From contig JASKKH010000011.1 of assembly GCA_030154265.1 (NCBI GenBank), forward strand, positions 1 to 57,235: a stretch of 57,235 nucleotides of DNA. Direction: 5' to 3'. The notes under the pieces are model-generated. The model was not told where the DNA came from. It saw only the letters and a list, made by a program, of their open reading frames with translations, and did no database searches. The translations under genes and the position numbers were made by a program. Below, piece after piece: positions 429 through 6,622 of the stretch. The stretch's first letter is position 1, and each line of letters opens with the position of its first letter. This DNA comes from Clostridia bacterium. Its GTDB lineage: Bacteria > Bacillota > DSM-521 > Neomoorellales > Neomoorellaceae.

Positions 429-2018
429 TTATACCGATTTCTTTATTTTTAACTTAGATACCTTAAATCCCAAAAGATTTAATGCCCTGGTCGTTTGCAT
501 AAAGTTTAGTTTTGTAAAAAACGGAAGTGACTCCGGTAATTGCTTAGTGGATTCGTCAATAAAGGCGAACACAATTTCGTAGTCACTTGGATTAGGCTTG
601 GTGTCTGGAAAATACTTTGCAAAATGTTTATTTTCTTTAGAAACAAGCTGGCGTACTTTTCTCCTAAATTTTTGGTCTTGCAAAAAATTTTCTGCTGATA
701 CCCTACCTTGCGCAAATAAGTGGCTTAAGGTAGAAGAACCTCTTTTAGGTTTTACGTGAATAAACTGCCCATTTTCGGTAAACAAATCGCATAGCTCTAT
801 TTTATCTCTAGCAGTATCACATTGTATTAGTTTTTTATCCATTAGAACAGCGCTTTTCATCTTCTTTGCGGCACGTTTGTTATATTTAGTCTCGTTTTCT
901 GATCCTCGGCAGTCGGGCATTTTTACTTCTGCATCCGGAATATCTTTAACAAAATTTGACACGGTTTTTGCAAAATTAGTTTCAATATTAAACCATTTTC
1001 CCATTGTTAATACATAAAGCTCTTCGTCCAAAAACGTTTCAAAGACAATGCTATCGTAAAGCTTCCACATGGGGATGAGGTCTTCTTCTGTGGATATTTT
1101 TACAAGAATTTTACATTTCTTTAACCTTTTCAAGTCAAGTTTTTCAGGCTCGAAAGTTCTCAAAAAATCTTCTACCTCTAAATCCGGATAAATATCATCC
1201 GTCTTTTTATTGGTTGAATACTTGAAGCCTTCAATTCCGAGCCACTCAACTATCTCAGGCGGAGCAAGATGAATTTTCTCAAATTCTCCTCTTTTAAGAC
1301 GCTCTATTAACAATGTGTCAAGTTTTTCTAAAATGATAGGGTCTCTAACTTCAGATAGGTTGTCTATTCAGTGAAATTGTTCCTTGTATTTATCGCTATA
1401 GTAAGCAGCTAGAAACTTCGGCAGCTTTTCTTTTAAATCGCGAAAGAACATTTTTGCGTTAAATACAAGGGCATCCTTCCCGGTAATCTTTGCAGCTAAA
1501 GTTTGGTCTAACGGTTCGCCCGTTACCATATGCATTAAATCGCGCAGAATATCTAACCCAAACGCATCCATCGAAGAGCTTTTACTTGTTTGTTTTCTGG
1601 TTTGAACTGTCAGCTCTTCAATATTAGACGTGTCTAAACTTCTAAGCTTCGATGGGTCAACTGTGTTTAATGTGACTTTTAGTCCAAAGCCACGTTCATA
1701 GCAATCATCCTTAAGCATATAGTGGCCATACCCGAATGCAATTGCGAATAGCCTTTCTTCACAGTTAATAAACAATAATGCTCTTGTAGAAGCATTGTGT
1801 ACTTCTTTAGTCTCTTCATTACTTCCTTCTTGTAGAAAAGATAGCCATTTAGGTCGTTTTTTTCTGACTTCTCCAATGATAATTATGCCCGGCATATCTA
1901 GTTCTGGTGATATGTCGTATTTATCGTAATCAATTTTTTCTTTCAAGCAATCTTTCCAATTATGAAACTCCGGCTTAATTAGGAACACCGCTAATTGACG
2001 GGATTTTGGTTTTACCAT
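429..2018 (-). pseudogene. DUF6119 / TIGR04141 family protein, interrupted by one in-frame TGA
   Basis: Two open stretches (2018-1368, 216 codons; 1367-429, 312 codons to the TAA) lie in the same frame, separated only by TGA at 1368-1370. The joined product is 529 residues, the usual size for the sporadically distributed TIGR04141/DUF6119 family as I recall it. The N-terminal half starts MVKPKSRQLAVFLIKPEF. The C-terminal half carries HVKPKRGSSTLSHLFAQG, a recognisable family signature. The residues just after the stop read IDNLSEVRDP. My memory of the family has a Trp before this IDN, which would make the change TGG to TGA. The ATG at 2018 follows GAAAGGAT. The function is unknown; the family is found near restriction and other defence genes, as here. 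It could be a dead gene, two separate polypeptides (a TTG at 1313 could restart), a read-through product or a base error. Confidence 0.75.
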
Positions 2019-2679: not shown

Positions 2680-3567
2680 GTGGAATCTGTAAGAACCGAT
2701 TATCACGTACATCCGGACTATTCCATAGATGCCTTCCCGGTAAAAATAAGGGATTATTGTCACCGGGCGTTGGAATTAGGACTTGGGGAGATTTGCTTCA
2801 CAACCCATTTAGAACTTGATCCCGTACGGCGGGAAATAGATAATTTCGTTTTTTTTAAGGGGAAAAAGCATTCGGTTCATGACCTGACCTGGCTAGACGG
2901 CTATTTTAGCGAAATTGCCCGGGCACGGGAAGAATTTGAGGCTGCAGGTCTCAAAGTAAAGGCCGGAATTGAGGTCGGGTACGACCGGGGTCTAGAAAAA
3001 GATATTGAAAAAATCGTTGAGGAGTATCCCTTTGATTTCGTAATGGGAGCTATCCACTGTCTTAACCACATTGCTATTTCTTCTATGAAGGAAAGCCCGC
3101 GCTATTTCAGTTCCCGGAGTCTCGCCGAAATACGCAACGATTACTTTACGACCTTAAAAGAGGCAGTCAAAACCGGGCTTTTTGATTGCATAGCTCACGT
3201 CGATCTTTACCGGCGGTATGGAATTAAACATTGCGGCCCTGGAATCTTAACCATTCACCGGGGTGCTATAGAACCGGTTTTTAAAGAAATGGCGCGCAAG
3301 GGAATGGGCCTGGAAGTTAATACCTCAAGCCGGCGCCGGGGATTGAAGGAATTTCACCCTTCTCCGGAAATAATTTCTTTGGCGGCGGAAGCAGGTATCA
3401 AAATTTTTACTGTTGGCTCTGACGCACACTCCCTCGATGACTTGGGGGACCATATCCAAGATGCTCTGGCTCTGCTGGAAGATTTTAACCTTTGCAACCA
3501 CGTTTTCACTCGGAGGCGTGCCGTTCCGTGTCTTCACAAAGCGATCGGCCAGAAAGCCGACCGGTAA
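2680..3567 (+). CDS. PHP-domain phosphatase, histidinol-phosphatase-like
   Basis: The 295-residue product belongs to the PHP metal-dependent phosphoesterase superfamily. Nearly the full set of metal ligands is visible: HVH at residues 9-11, TTHLE near 41, the Glu of GIEVGY, GAIHCL, AHVDLY and GSDAHSLDD. The nearest named relatives are HisK-type histidinol phosphatases, but there are no histidine genes here. It ends 18 bases from the convergent end of the inositol operon and shares its GC-rich base composition, so I infer a role in dephosphorylating an inositol phosphate intermediate; this is not proven. The GTG start at 2680 has only a distant AAGAAGG (2661-2667). The frame is open upstream, so the start is uncertain. 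Confidence 0.85.
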   Translation: MESVRTDYHVHPDYSIDAFPVKIRDYCHRALELGLGEICFTTHLELDPVRREIDNFVFFKGKKHSVHDLTWLDGYFSEIARAREEFEAAGLKVKAGIEVGYDRGLEKDIEKIVEEYPFDFVMGAIHCLNHIAISSMKESPRYFSSRSLAEIRNDYFTTLKEAVKTGLFDCIAHVDLYRRYGIKHCGPGILTIHRGAIEPVFKEMARKGMGLEVNTSSRRRGLKEFHPSPEIISLAAEAGIKIFTVGSDAHSLDDLGDHIQDALALLEDFNLCNHVFTRRRAVPCLHKAIGQKADR

Positions 3568-3585: not shown

Positions 3586-4917
3586 TCACATTAATTTACG
3601 GGCATTATAGAGGCGAGCCAAGGCCTGAAGGTGAGTAACGGTAGCAAGCAAGATTAGGGTGGCCGGAATCAGGTTTAAAATACCGCCCAGCATAATGATA
3701 AACAGGCGACCGTCGCGATTAGCCGGGAGGTAACGAAGTATACCGTCATAGGATTCAGGTATAAAGGGCTTGCCGGTCAGAGCATGAAACTTTTCCTTGA
3801 GCAGCATGGACATGGGCATTCCGGTGAGAGTGGCGGCGCAGGCTAGCAGCGCCAGGGAGTTCTCTGCCTTAGAACACCAGGCATATGCCATGCCAAGAAC
3901 AATTAAAAAATCTGCGTAACGGTCGAGCACGGCATCGAAAAGTCCCCCATAATTACTTTTTAAAAACTTTAGGCGGGCAATTTCCCCGTCAACCCCGTCC
4001 AAGATGGAACTGAGCTGCGCCAACAGTCCTCCATAAAGGGGATGCACCATAGCAAAAAAAACAGCTGAAGCCGCTGAAATTAAAAAAGAAAGGAAAGTAA
4101 CTTGATTCGGTGTTATGCTGGTCCGGGCGAAAAGTTTTGTTATCCGAAGGGAAACCCTGCGGTTTAAAACGCGGGAAACAAGACCATCTTTAGGGGGTAC
4201 CAGGGACTGAAGGAGAATTTTTTCAGCGTGGCGGTAGCTGGGAAGGTCATCCACATCAATCCAGGTGCCGTTAACGAAATGTAATTTTACTTTGCGCTGG
4301 CCGGCCAGTATGTTTACCGCATCGGTGAGGGTGTAGCGGCATTGAGAAATTGCCTCGGAAAGGGCTTCCAAAAGCGCCCCGGTGCCAATGAAAAGACCGC
4401 AGTCCACGGTGTTAAAATCACGCAGGTCTTTGCCCAGTTTTACGGCAAAATCCTGCTCAGCTTTTACCTTGGTACATTCCCCCAGGTCATACACGCTTTT
4501 CAGACGCCGGTCAGCAGCCAGCAAAAGTTCATCTTCGTTGATATTTGGCGCCTCGGCAACAAAAGCTTTAAGGACATCGAGTTCGAAGACGTGGTCCGAC
4601 ATTATTAAAATAAATTTTTCTCCCTGGCGGTAATTTTTTCGGAATGTGCAGGCGGACACGCCGTTTCCCAGTTCCCAGTCCGGGTTATGTAAATAGGTAA
4701 TGTTTACTCCGAATTTGCTCCCGTTCCCGAGATGGTCCTGAATTTCACTGGAATAACAGCCGGTTATAATTACAAAGTCATTGATGCCGCATTCCCGCAA
4801 AGCAAGAATGTTTCGCTCAATTAAAGAAAGGCCCAATAAGCGCACAAGAGGCTTGGGACCGCTAAAATGCGGCCTTAGCCTCTTCCCTTCGCCGGCAGCG
4901 AGGATAACGGCCCGCAT
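3586..4917 (-). CDS. bifunctional inositol-1-phosphate cytidylyltransferase / di-myo-inositol-phosphate-phosphate synthase
   Basis: The 443-residue fusion has two parts. Residues 1-235 are a sugar-phosphate nucleotidyltransferase (LAAGEGKRLRP at 7-16 and the acceptor Lys in GPKPLV). Residues about 250-443 are a membrane CDP-alcohol phosphotransferase with the complete motif D307-G...A314-R315-x8-G324-x3-D328-x3-D332 and several hydrophobic helices. This is the known architecture of IPCT/DIPPS: CTP + inositol-1-phosphate gives CDP-inositol, which is then condensed with inositol phosphate to phosphorylated di-myo-inositol phosphate. The ATG at 4915-4917 overlaps the TAA of ino1 (TAATG), so the two are translationally coupled. 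Longer upstream extensions of the frame would overlap ino1 and lack support. An alternative is synthesis of an inositol phospholipid head group, but the fused nucleotidyltransferase favours DIP. Confidence 0.85.
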   Translation of the reverse strand: MRAVILAAGEGKRLRPHFSGPKPLVRLLGLSLIERNILALRECGINDFVIITGCYSSEIQDHLGNGSKFGVNITYLHNPDWELGNGVSACTFRKNYRQGEKFILIMSDHVFELDVLKAFVAEAPNINEDELLLAADRRLKSVYDLGECTKVKAEQDFAVKLGKDLRDFNTVDCGLFIGTGALLEALSEAISQCRYTLTDAVNILAGQRKVKLHFVNGTWIDVDDLPSYRHAEKILLQSLVPPKDGLVSRVLNRRVSLRITKLFARTSITPNQVTFLSFLISAASAVFFAMVHPLYGGLLAQLSSILDGVDGEIARLKFLKSNYGGLFDAVLDRYADFLIVLGMAYAWCSKAENSLALLACAATLTGMPMSMLLKEKFHALTGKPFIPESYDGILRYLPANRDGRLFIIMLGGILNLIPATLILLATVTHLQALARLYNARKLM

Positions 4918-6008
4918 TAACGTTCCCTCCTGCCGGCAATAAATTCTTCTACCATCTTTTTGGCTTCGGTATCGGTGTATTGAATCGGCGGCGATTTCAT
5001 AGTAAAAGCCGAAATGGAAGTCAAGATACCACCAATTTTGCGATCTAGAGCCAGCTTCATGCACCTGATAGCATCTATAATAACACCGCCGCTGTTGGGC
5101 GAGTCTTCTACGGAAAGTTTTACATCCAATGTTAGTGGTACATTTCCGAAGCCCCTTCCCTCCATACGAATATGACAAATTTTATTGTCATTTAACCAGG
5201 GAATATAATCACTGGGGCCGATGTGAATGTTATCATCACTCAGGGAAACTTTCAGCTCTGCTTGTACAGACTGGGTTTTTGATTTTTTCTTGGATTTGAG
5301 CCTACTACGATTAAGCATGTTTAAGAAGTCCGTATTCCCACCGAAATTCACCTGGTAAGTACGGTCAAGAATTACCCCACGGTTTTCAAATAGTTTGGTT
5401 AGAGTTCGATGGACAATGGTGGCTCCCACCTGGCTTTTTACATCATCCCCTATAATGGGAATATTTTTTTCACGGAATTTTTCGGCCCATTTCTCATCGG
5501 AAGCGATAAAAACCGGCATGGCGTTAATAAATCCTACGTTGGCTTCCAGGCACGCTTCGGCGTAGAACCTGGCCGCTTTTTCGGACCCCACCGGCAGGTA
5601 GTTTATGAGGATTTCTGCACCGCTTTCCTTCAGGACTCTGGCCACATCACAGGGTTCCTGATCGGCAACAACAAAGGTTTTGTTCTCGTCATAATCGGCC
5701 ATGTGCTCAGATACACCATCCAGAACATGACCCATTTGTACCTCAACGGGATAGTCCGGCAGATCCTTGTAAAAGATGGTGGTACAGTTGGGTGCTGCAA
5801 AAATTGCCTCCTTAAGTTCTTTACCTACCTTGCGCCTGTCCACGTCAAACGCAGCAACTACGTTGATGTCTCCAGGTTTATATCCGCCAAGGTCATAATT
5901 CATAAGCCCGATTGTATTTTCCGGCGAGTTTTTGTACATTTCGATTCCCTGGAGCAAAGCACTGGCACAGTTGCCTACGCCTACAATAGCTATGTTTATT
6001 TTACCCAT
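4917..6008 (-). CDS. ino1: myo-inositol-1-phosphate synthase
   Basis: The 363-residue NAD-dependent enzyme converts glucose-6-phosphate to L-myo-inositol-1-phosphate. It has an N-terminal Rossmann motif VGVGNCASALLQG at residues 9-21, the loop GDDVKSQVGATIVHR that carries the catalytic Lys of the family, NFGGNTDFLNML, and a C-terminal SAFTMKSPP. The length matches the short bacterial/archaeal (Mycobacterium, Thermotoga) type rather than the roughly 530-residue eukaryotic type. The ATG at 6008 follows AAAGGAGG at good spacing. It is the first gene of the two-gene inositol operon and sits behind a leader of about 300 bases with an intrinsic terminator, which suggests control by transcription attenuation. 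Confidence 0.93.
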   Translation of the reverse strand: MGKINIAIVGVGNCASALLQGIEMYKNSPENTIGLMNYDLGGYKPGDINVVAAFDVDRRKVGKELKEAIFAAPNCTTIFYKDLPDYPVEVQMGHVLDGVSEHMADYDENKTFVVADQEPCDVARVLKESGAEILINYLPVGSEKAARFYAEACLEANVGFINAMPVFIASDEKWAEKFREKNIPIIGDDVKSQVGATIVHRTLTKLFENRGVILDRTYQVNFGGNTDFLNMLNRSRLKSKKKSKTQSVQAELKVSLSDDNIHIGPSDYIPWLNDNKICHIRMEGRGFGNVPLTLDVKLSVEDSPNSGGVIIDAIRCMKLALDRKIGGILTSISAFTMKSPPIQYTDTEAKKMVEEFIAGRRER

Positions 6009-6300
6009 TTTAATTCCTCCTTTTTTTAATTTTATTTGCAGCTTTTCTAATGAACGCCCCTTCTAGATAAAGGCATCCCCCCCTTGAAACAAAAAAACTC
6101 CCGATGCGTAACCGGGAGTGTCGTTTACTTCAGCCATTACACGAACAACTGGTACAACGATCACAGAAACTGTTTGATATGTTTTCATGTTTTCTTGATC
6201 AGGAAAGATACACTCCCTTAAAATACTTCTCTTCAAATAAGAGATTCTTTTCACCTTGCCGGTTATTAAAACCGGTAAAAAGATATCTGCAGTTTACCTA
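6009..6300 (-). promoter_or_regulatory. ino1 leader with terminator and competing anti-terminator pairing
   Basis: Read on the minus strand, the leader has a CCGGTT/AACCGG hairpin (about 6256-6275), then GGGAGTGT (6217-6210), then about 90 bases later ACACTCCC (6121-6114), which is the 5' arm of a strong terminator. GGGAGTGT is perfectly complementary to ACACTCCC over 8 bases, so two mutually exclusive structures are possible: terminator, or anti-terminator. The family is unknown to me. I see no T-box (TGGNACC), SAM, ydaO, PreQ1, ZTP or fluoride motif. A frame starting at an ATG near 6188 runs through the terminator but has no ribosome site. Confidence 0.55.
6091..6121 (-). terminator. intrinsic terminator inside the ino1 leader
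   Basis: On the minus strand ACTCCCG (6119-6113), a 9-base loop and CGGGAGT (6103-6097) are followed by seven T. It lies about 85 bases upstream of the ino1 ATG and downstream of the predicted promoter, so it is placed as an attenuator. Confidence 0.75.
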
Positions 6301-6317
6301 GTCTTTCTTTATTTATA

Positions 6318-6345
6318 AGTATATTTTATTAGCACTCAACGGCAA
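6318..6345 (-). promoter_or_regulatory. predicted sigma-A promoter of the inositol operon
   Basis: On the minus strand TTGCCG (6345-6340), a 16-base spacer and TATACT (6323-6318). It is placed about 300 bases before ino1, giving the long leader. The call rests on motif match only. Confidence 0.4.
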
Positions 6346-6622
6346 CGAATGCTGCCATTAATTATGGTATAAGCAAAATAATCCAATTTCAAGTCCCATT
6401 TTAGCGTTTTTTACCTTAAATAAGGCTTTAAAAAGAAAACAAGAAATGTGAATATTTAAATAATATTCATTTCCGGCGAATTATGCCCGATATTTTGGTA
6501 TTTTATTTAAGAATTGTTCAGTAAAGTCTTAGGTAACTATTAGGTGTCTTTGTGAATTAGTGCCACTGAATAATTATTTTATTAAATCTTACATATCCTC
6601 TCTATACATCTTTCGTCGGTCT
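6346..6622. other. non-coding stretch, nothing recognised
   Basis: AT-rich sequence between the predicted inositol promoter and repeat copy B. I see no gene, RNA or further repeat in it. Confidence 0.5.

What the first reader, a model, noticed from the sequence alone, without database searches (positions are those of the whole stretch)
6009..6345. Unassigned attenuator/riboswitch-like leader controlling an inositol operon
Upstream of ino1 on the minus strand there is a predicted promoter, a leader of about 300 bases, a strong intrinsic terminator (6121-6091) and, 90 bases before it, GGGAGTGT (6217-6210) that is perfectly complementary to the terminator's 5' arm ACACTCCC (6121-6114). Two exclusive folds are the hallmark of transcription attenuation. 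None of the riboswitch consensus motifs I know fits. For a compatible-solute type product one would expect an osmotic, temperature or metabolite signal. Seen: the pairing and terminator. Inferred: the regulatory role.
Basis: partly seen in the sequence, partly recalled or inferred. Interest (0 to 1): 0.7.

Follow-up and report, generated by a model that had tools for sequence, protein, structure and literature searches.

The report
Heat-shock operator controlling a thermoprotectant operon
The stretch before the inositol genes carries the DNA switch that bacteria normally use for heat-shock chaperones (the HrcA/CIRCE operator), followed by an RNA stop signal that may fine-tune it, so these bacteria appear to make a heat-protecting inositol compound as part of their heat-shock response.

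Summary
The promoter (-35 6392-6387, -10 6369-6364) is followed at 6355-6329 by a CIRCE-type operator, the binding site of the heat-shock repressor HrcA (15/18; right half GAGTGCTAA perfect). Of 15 loci with ino1 at least 82% identical, 14 have such a site at the same place. Four Thermaerobacter-like genomes carry a variant, and one complete genome has a perfect CIRCE before PHP-ino1-IPCT/DIPPS. The other strong sites examined precede groES, hrcA or htpG/hsp20. The operon most likely makes di-myo-inositol phosphate, a thermolyte.

The attenuator reading is partly supported. In 12 of 14 leaders an upstream strand can pair with the terminator's 5' arm; in nine alignable leaders this antiterminator and a competing hairpin (P1) are supported by covariation. 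But the window's own GGGAGTGT is not conserved in its closest relative and does not sit where the relatives' strand sits. No Rfam family fits; the trigger is unknown. Heat opening of P1 is possible but unproven.

Best reading: HrcA heat-shock control plus a leader attenuator, a new target of a known regulator.

The parts
6364..6392 (-). sigma-70-type promoter of the ino1 operon: -35 TTGAAA 6392-6387, 17-nt spacer, -10 TACCAT 6369-6364
   Evidence: aligns with TTGAAA-17-TATAAT in L006 and similar promoters in other relatives
6329..6355 (-). CIRCE-type HrcA operator GCAGCATTC-N9-GAGTGCTAA (15/18; right half perfect), about +1 to +28 of the transcript
   Evidence: only three better sites in the genome: hrcA and two groES promoters; 14 of 15 close ino1 loci
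6091..6358 (-). transcribed leader up to the terminator
   Evidence: fold z-score -2.7
6210..6217 (-).
   Evidence: p = 0.013; not conserved in L006; analogous, not homologous in position, to the strand in relatives
6180..6209 (-). ATCTTTCCTGATCAAGAAAAC region resembling the 5' strand of the P1 hairpin of relatives (CUUCUGAUUAA)
   Evidence: weak model R1 hit 6087-6194, 20 bits, E 0.46; resemblance read by eye
6097..6121 (-). intrinsic terminator hairpin, 5' arm ACACTCCC 6121-6114; T-run follows to 6091
   Evidence: terminators at the equivalent place in relatives
4917..6008 (-). ino1, myo-inositol-1-phosphate synthase (363 aa)
3586..4965 (-). bifunctional CTP:inositol-1-phosphate cytidylyltransferase / di-myo-inositol-phosphate-phosphate synthase (IPCT/DIPPS); the real start is a little inside this frame, next to the end of ino1
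   Evidence: (PDB 4mnd, E 5e-57)
2680..3567 (+). PHP/HisJ-family phosphatase-like gene, convergent with the operon; lies directly before ino1 in several other genomes

Best explanation
The ino1-IPCT/DIPPS operon makes di-myo-inositol phosphate, a thermoprotective compatible solute, and is a member of the HrcA heat-shock regulon. HrcA bound at the CIRCE-type site at the transcription start (6355-6329) represses it. When heat inactivates HrcA or unfolded protein titrates GroE, the operon is derepressed together with groESL and dnaK. Downstream, the transcript passes a leader terminator (6121-6091). In most relatives the GGGAGUGU strand is either held in hairpin P1, which lets the terminator form, or pairs with the terminator's 5' arm, which gives read-through: a second, attenuation-type layer. 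Shown by sequence and comparison: the operator, its conservation and position, the operon content, the terminator, and covariation of P1 and antiterminator in relatives. Inferred: HrcA binding, heat induction, actual antitermination, and that the diverged window leader still switches.
For: The genome has hrcA with a perfect CIRCE at its own promoter; only four sites with at most 3 mismatches exist in 2 Mb: hrcA, groES, a second groES, ino1. Among 110 upstream regions, every site scoring 14/18 or more is in a Bacillota ino1 locus, and none of the 60 shuffles of any of those sequences reached the observed score. In 14 genomes the ino1 site is one of very few relaxed matches; the others examined precede groES, hrcA, htpG/hsp20. 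Four Thermaerobacter-like genomes share TTGACAGCC-N9-GAGTGCTAA upstream of ino1. One complete genome has a perfect 18/18 CIRCE before PHP-ino1-IPCT/DIPPS. Leader: antiterminator complementarity in 12 of 14 leaders; P1 partner permutation p about 5e-5, antiterminator p 7e-4; antiterminator covariation 0/500, including pairs lying in the terminator loop; a model of the leader finds only ino1 leaders strongly among 398 genomes. In Pyrococcus furiosus the same gene (PF1616) is heat-induced, log2FC 4.0 (PMC10746257).
Against: The window's left CIRCE half matches at only 6 of 9, and most relatives have TTAGCAGCN rather than TTAGCACTC on the left, so affinity for HrcA is unproven. One close locus (L015) and most of the more distant ino1 loci lack the site. 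The window's antiterminator pairing is not conserved in L006, and the window leader matches the relatives' leader model only weakly. Predicted P1-to-antiterminator transition temperatures vary from under 5 to 75 C or more and do not track estimated growth temperature significantly (rho 0.49, p 0.18).
Confidence: 0.72

Rival explanations
1. Thermo-attenuator: the P1 hairpin, rich in A-U and G-U pairs, melts on heating and frees GGGAGUGU to pair with the terminator's 5' arm, so the RNA itself senses heat in addition to HrcA.
For: Fold calculations shift from P1 to antiterminator on heating in 7 of 9 relatives; conserved wobble pairs in P1 keep it weaker per pair than the antiterminator.
Against: Transition temperatures scatter widely; no significant link to estimated growth temperature; the window leader shows no such shift; a longer, weaker hairpin tends to give this trend in any nearest-neighbour calculation.
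Confidence: 0.2
2. Metabolite- or protein-responsive attenuator (riboswitch or RNA-binding protein) that feeds back on inositol phosphate or another signal.
For: A covarying three-strand leader unique to ino1.
Against: P1 is a plain hairpin with variable loop and outer stem, without a conserved complex pocket; no Rfam match.
Confidence: 0.25
3. In this window the leader no longer switches; the terminator merely lowers basal expression and control is by HrcA alone.
For: Antiterminator not conserved in L006; weak model match; L007 has CIRCE with no terminator leader at all; the full-length fold favours the terminator at all temperatures.
Against: The 8-bp complement in the window is better than chance (p 0.013) and dominates before the 3' arm is made.
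Confidence: 0.35
4. The CIRCE-like sequence is a structural 5' RNA hairpin rather than an HrcA operator.
For: It is transcribed and is an inverted repeat; the left arm departs from the DNA consensus in most loci.
Against: The right arm is exactly the HrcA half-site; in Thermaerobacter-like genomes the match overlaps a TTGACA -35-like element, so its left arm is probably not transcribed; one genome has the perfect palindrome.
Confidence: 0.08
5. Leader-peptide attenuation (valine-rich ORF 6254-6063).
For: An ORF with several valine codons overlaps the leader.
Against: The aligned frame in L006 carries an in-frame TGA; other relatives have little room for an ORF between CIRCE and P1; no ribosome-binding site at a proper distance.
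Confidence: 0.03

Closest known systems
HrcA/CIRCE class I heat-shock regulon (Bacillus subtilis groESL, dnaK; also Campylobacter, Lactobacillus)
   Same: Operator TTAGCACTC-N9-GAGTGCTAA at the promoter or start site, repressor HrcA encoded in the same genome, relief on heat or GroE shortage (PMC3842655, PMC8533110)
   Different: Target is a compatible-solute operon rather than chaperones; the left half-site is usually TTAGCAGCN; a terminator leader follows
Phr heat-shock regulon of Pyrococcus furiosus and MIPS (PF1616)
   Same: Inositol-1-phosphate synthase for DIP is heat-induced (PMC10746257); direct Phr control of this gene is my recollection of the literature
   Different: Archaeal, unrelated repressor and operator; would be convergent wiring
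Terminator/antiterminator leaders (riboswitch, T-box, trp-type)
   Same: Two exclusive folds sharing the terminator's 5' arm
   Different: No known aptamer, tRNA-binding or leader-peptide part

Membership tests
CIRCE (HrcA operator) | TTAGCACTC-N9-GAGTGCTAA with 9-nt spacing | tested here: inconclusive
   Window 15/18, right half 9/9, left 6/9; L006 17/18; L252 18/18
CIRCE (HrcA operator) | Overlaps promoter or transcription start | tested here: met
   Begins 9 nt after the -10 hexamer in the window and close to it in relatives
CIRCE (HrcA operator) | hrcA present and itself CIRCE-controlled | tested here: met
   L001, perfect CIRCE before hrcA
CIRCE (HrcA operator) | HrcA binds and heat derepresses | not testable with these tools
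   needs gel shift or expression data
Transcription attenuator | Intrinsic terminator in the leader | tested here: met
Transcription attenuator | Conserved alternative antiterminator helix | tested here: inconclusive
   Met with covariation in relatives, not conserved for the window's own strand in L006
Known riboswitch, T-box or other Rfam cis-regulator | Match to an Rfam model above gathering score | tested here: not met
RNA thermometer | Temperature-dependent opening near physiological temperature | tested here: inconclusive
Leader-peptide attenuator | Conserved leader ORF with regulatory codons | tested here: not met
   in-frame stop in L006
DIP biosynthesis operon (ino1 + IPCT/DIPPS) | Fused cytidylyltransferase and CDP-alcohol phosphotransferase next to ino1 | tested here: met
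   (4mnd E 5e-57); the Thermococcales NCBIfam equivalog is matched below its cutoff

The most novel reading that the evidence does not exclude
Thermoprotectant synthesis is under double heat control: an HrcA operator at the promoter and, just downstream in the same transcript, an RNA attenuator whose wobble-rich hairpin opens with temperature, a new class of heat-responsive transcription-terminating leader.
Probability: 0.15. Interest if true: 0.85.

Novelty: new variant of a known kind. Interest (0 to 1): 0.62.

Why it matters
HrcA is known mainly as a chaperone regulator. Here it appears to control synthesis of a small-molecule thermoprotectant, linking protein-based and solute-based heat protection in bacteria as Phr seems to do in archaea. 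It gives a testable idea of why ino1/DIP genes occur patchily in Bacillota that look moderately thermophilic. The gene neighbourhood also nominates a PHP-family protein for the phosphatase step of DIP synthesis, which I recall as unassigned. The covarying leader is a candidate new cis-regulatory RNA.

Tried and rejected
Rfam matches in the leader are all below gathering score (atoC 27.7 of 50 on the opposite strand and others). Leader peptide rejected (in-frame stop in L006). The leader as a general mobile element rejected: the model hits only ino1 leaders strongly in 398 genomes, and the weak hits inspected (L141, L145) are ordinary terminators. A promoter downstream of the terminator: none found by the scan. 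Growth-temperature correlation: 16S not available; amino-acid based estimates gave rho 0.49, p 0.18, and an apparent stronger trend on less sequence did not hold. Wider searches for more close ino1 loci returned no new ones. Literature searches for HrcA/CIRCE with inositol or compatible solutes returned only papers where these terms appear to co-occur incidentally, judged from titles and abstracts.

Full report
Observation. The terminator has a 9-bp stem and a T-run. The complement to its 5' arm is better than dinucleotide shuffles of the leader at p = 0.013, so it is more than chance but weak on its own. No Rfam family reaches threshold.

Directly after the promoter TTGAAA-17-TACCAT (6392-6364) lies GCAGCATTC-GTTGCCGTT-GAGTGCTAA (6355-6329), a CIRCE-type operator with a perfect right half. 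In the 2-Mb genome only four such sites with at most 3 mismatches exist: before hrcA (0 mismatches), groES (1), a second groES (2) and ino1 (3); the reversed control pattern gives one. At 3 mismatches the site alone would be marginal, so conservation decides.

Conservation. I collected ino1 loci from the phylum and from genome contigs. Of 15 distinct loci with Ino1 at least 82% identical, 14 carry the site with at most 2 mismatches to TTAGCA-N12-GAGTGCTAA, close downstream of the -10 hexamer; L015 does not. The best case among these is L006, TTAGCACTC-N9-GAGTGCTGA. Most have TTAGCAGCN as left arm. In each of 14 genomes searched the ino1 site, where present, is one of very few relaxed matches, and the other strong ones examined precede groES, hrcA, htpG/hsp20. 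Four Thermaerobacter-like genomes carry TTGACAGCC-N9-GAGTGCTAA 516 to 1343 nt before ino1, where the left arm looks like a -35 box. A complete genome (G286) has a perfect CIRCE right after a TATAAT-type promoter and before PHP-ino1-IPCT/DIPPS. There, a terminator-like hairpin also lies between PHP and ino1, so co-transcription is not certain. Three different layouts with the same operator before the same pathway make a chance or purely structural origin unlikely. Other, mostly more distant ino1 loci lack a site within the upstream DNA inspected.

Operon. ino1 is followed by a fused cytidylyltransferase / CDP-alcohol phosphotransferase whose best solved relative is IPCT/DIPPS (4mnd, E 5e-57). 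The product is therefore most likely di-myo-inositol phosphate, a thermolyte of hyperthermophiles. Amino-acid composition puts these genomes at roughly 48-67 C, a rough estimate only. In Pyrococcus furiosus ino1 is strongly heat-induced (PMC10746257).

Leader. Eleven relatives in addition to the window have, between CIRCE and ino1 (in L015 between promoter and ino1), a terminator whose 5' arm is complementary to an upstream strand; L006 and L107 do not. In the nine that align best (A1) this upstream strand GGGAGUGU is the 3' side of a hairpin P1. P1 strands prefer their own partner over those of other loci (mean -17.0 against -11.9 kcal/mol, permutation p about 5e-5) and so do the antiterminator strands (-16.2 against -13.2, p 7e-4) (the strands were chosen by hand from the folds). 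On the MAFFT alignment the antiterminator has four pairs with changes on both sides and 0 of 500 shuffles reach its covariation score; some of these pairs involve bases in the terminator loop, so they are not explained by the terminator stem itself. P1 alone on that alignment is less clear (51/500), partly through a one-base misregister in L012. A covariance model finds only ino1 leaders strongly among 398 genomes.

The window's leader. It has diverged: the model scores only 20 bits, its GGGAGTGT lies upstream of the P1-like sequence instead of downstream, and its closest relative L006 reads GGGAACAT there. Fold calculations let the pairing form before the terminator's 3' arm is made, after which the terminator wins at all temperatures. 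Whether it still switches is open.

Trigger. Heating shifts P1 to antiterminator in silico in 7 of 9 relatives, but midpoints range from below 5 to 75 C or more and do not track estimated growth temperature significantly. I treat a thermo-attenuator as a possibility, not a result.

Verdict. The finding is real and more interesting than filed, for a different reason: an HrcA/CIRCE operator at a thermoprotectant operon. I found no report of this in the open literature held here, judged mainly from titles and abstracts; subscription journals are mostly not held.

Noticed in passing
window 2680-3567 (+); L252; L249, L250, L251, L255: A PHP/HisJ-family gene next to the operon lies directly before ino1 in five other genomes, in one under a perfect CIRCE; candidate for the phosphatase that turns phosphorylated DIP into DIP.
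   Followed up: partly
window 429-1313 and 1368-2018 (-): Two adjacent ORFs match the C-terminal and N-terminal parts of DUF6119 (PF19614), as if one gene were split.
   Followed up: no
ino1 upstream regions of L009, L011, L027: A second conserved hairpin (CGTTTTGAAA...TTTCAAAACG) sits between the terminator and the ribosome-binding site of ino1.
   Followed up: no
L010 and L106 leaders: Extra terminator-like hairpins with the same ACUCCC/GGGAGU theme; in L106 about 200 nt separate two of them.
   Followed up: no
ino1 loci with the P1 leader versus L006, L007: Loci whose leader carries GGGAGUG have a CIRCE left arm without CACTC (mostly TTAGCAGCN), while L006 and L007 keep CACTC/CACCC; the change may avoid pairing between operator RNA and leader.
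   Followed up: no
phylum-wide: ino1 is patchy (2 of 22 genomes in the window's class) yet up to 94% identical in another family, with operator retained: suggests transfer of the regulated cassette.
   Followed up: partly
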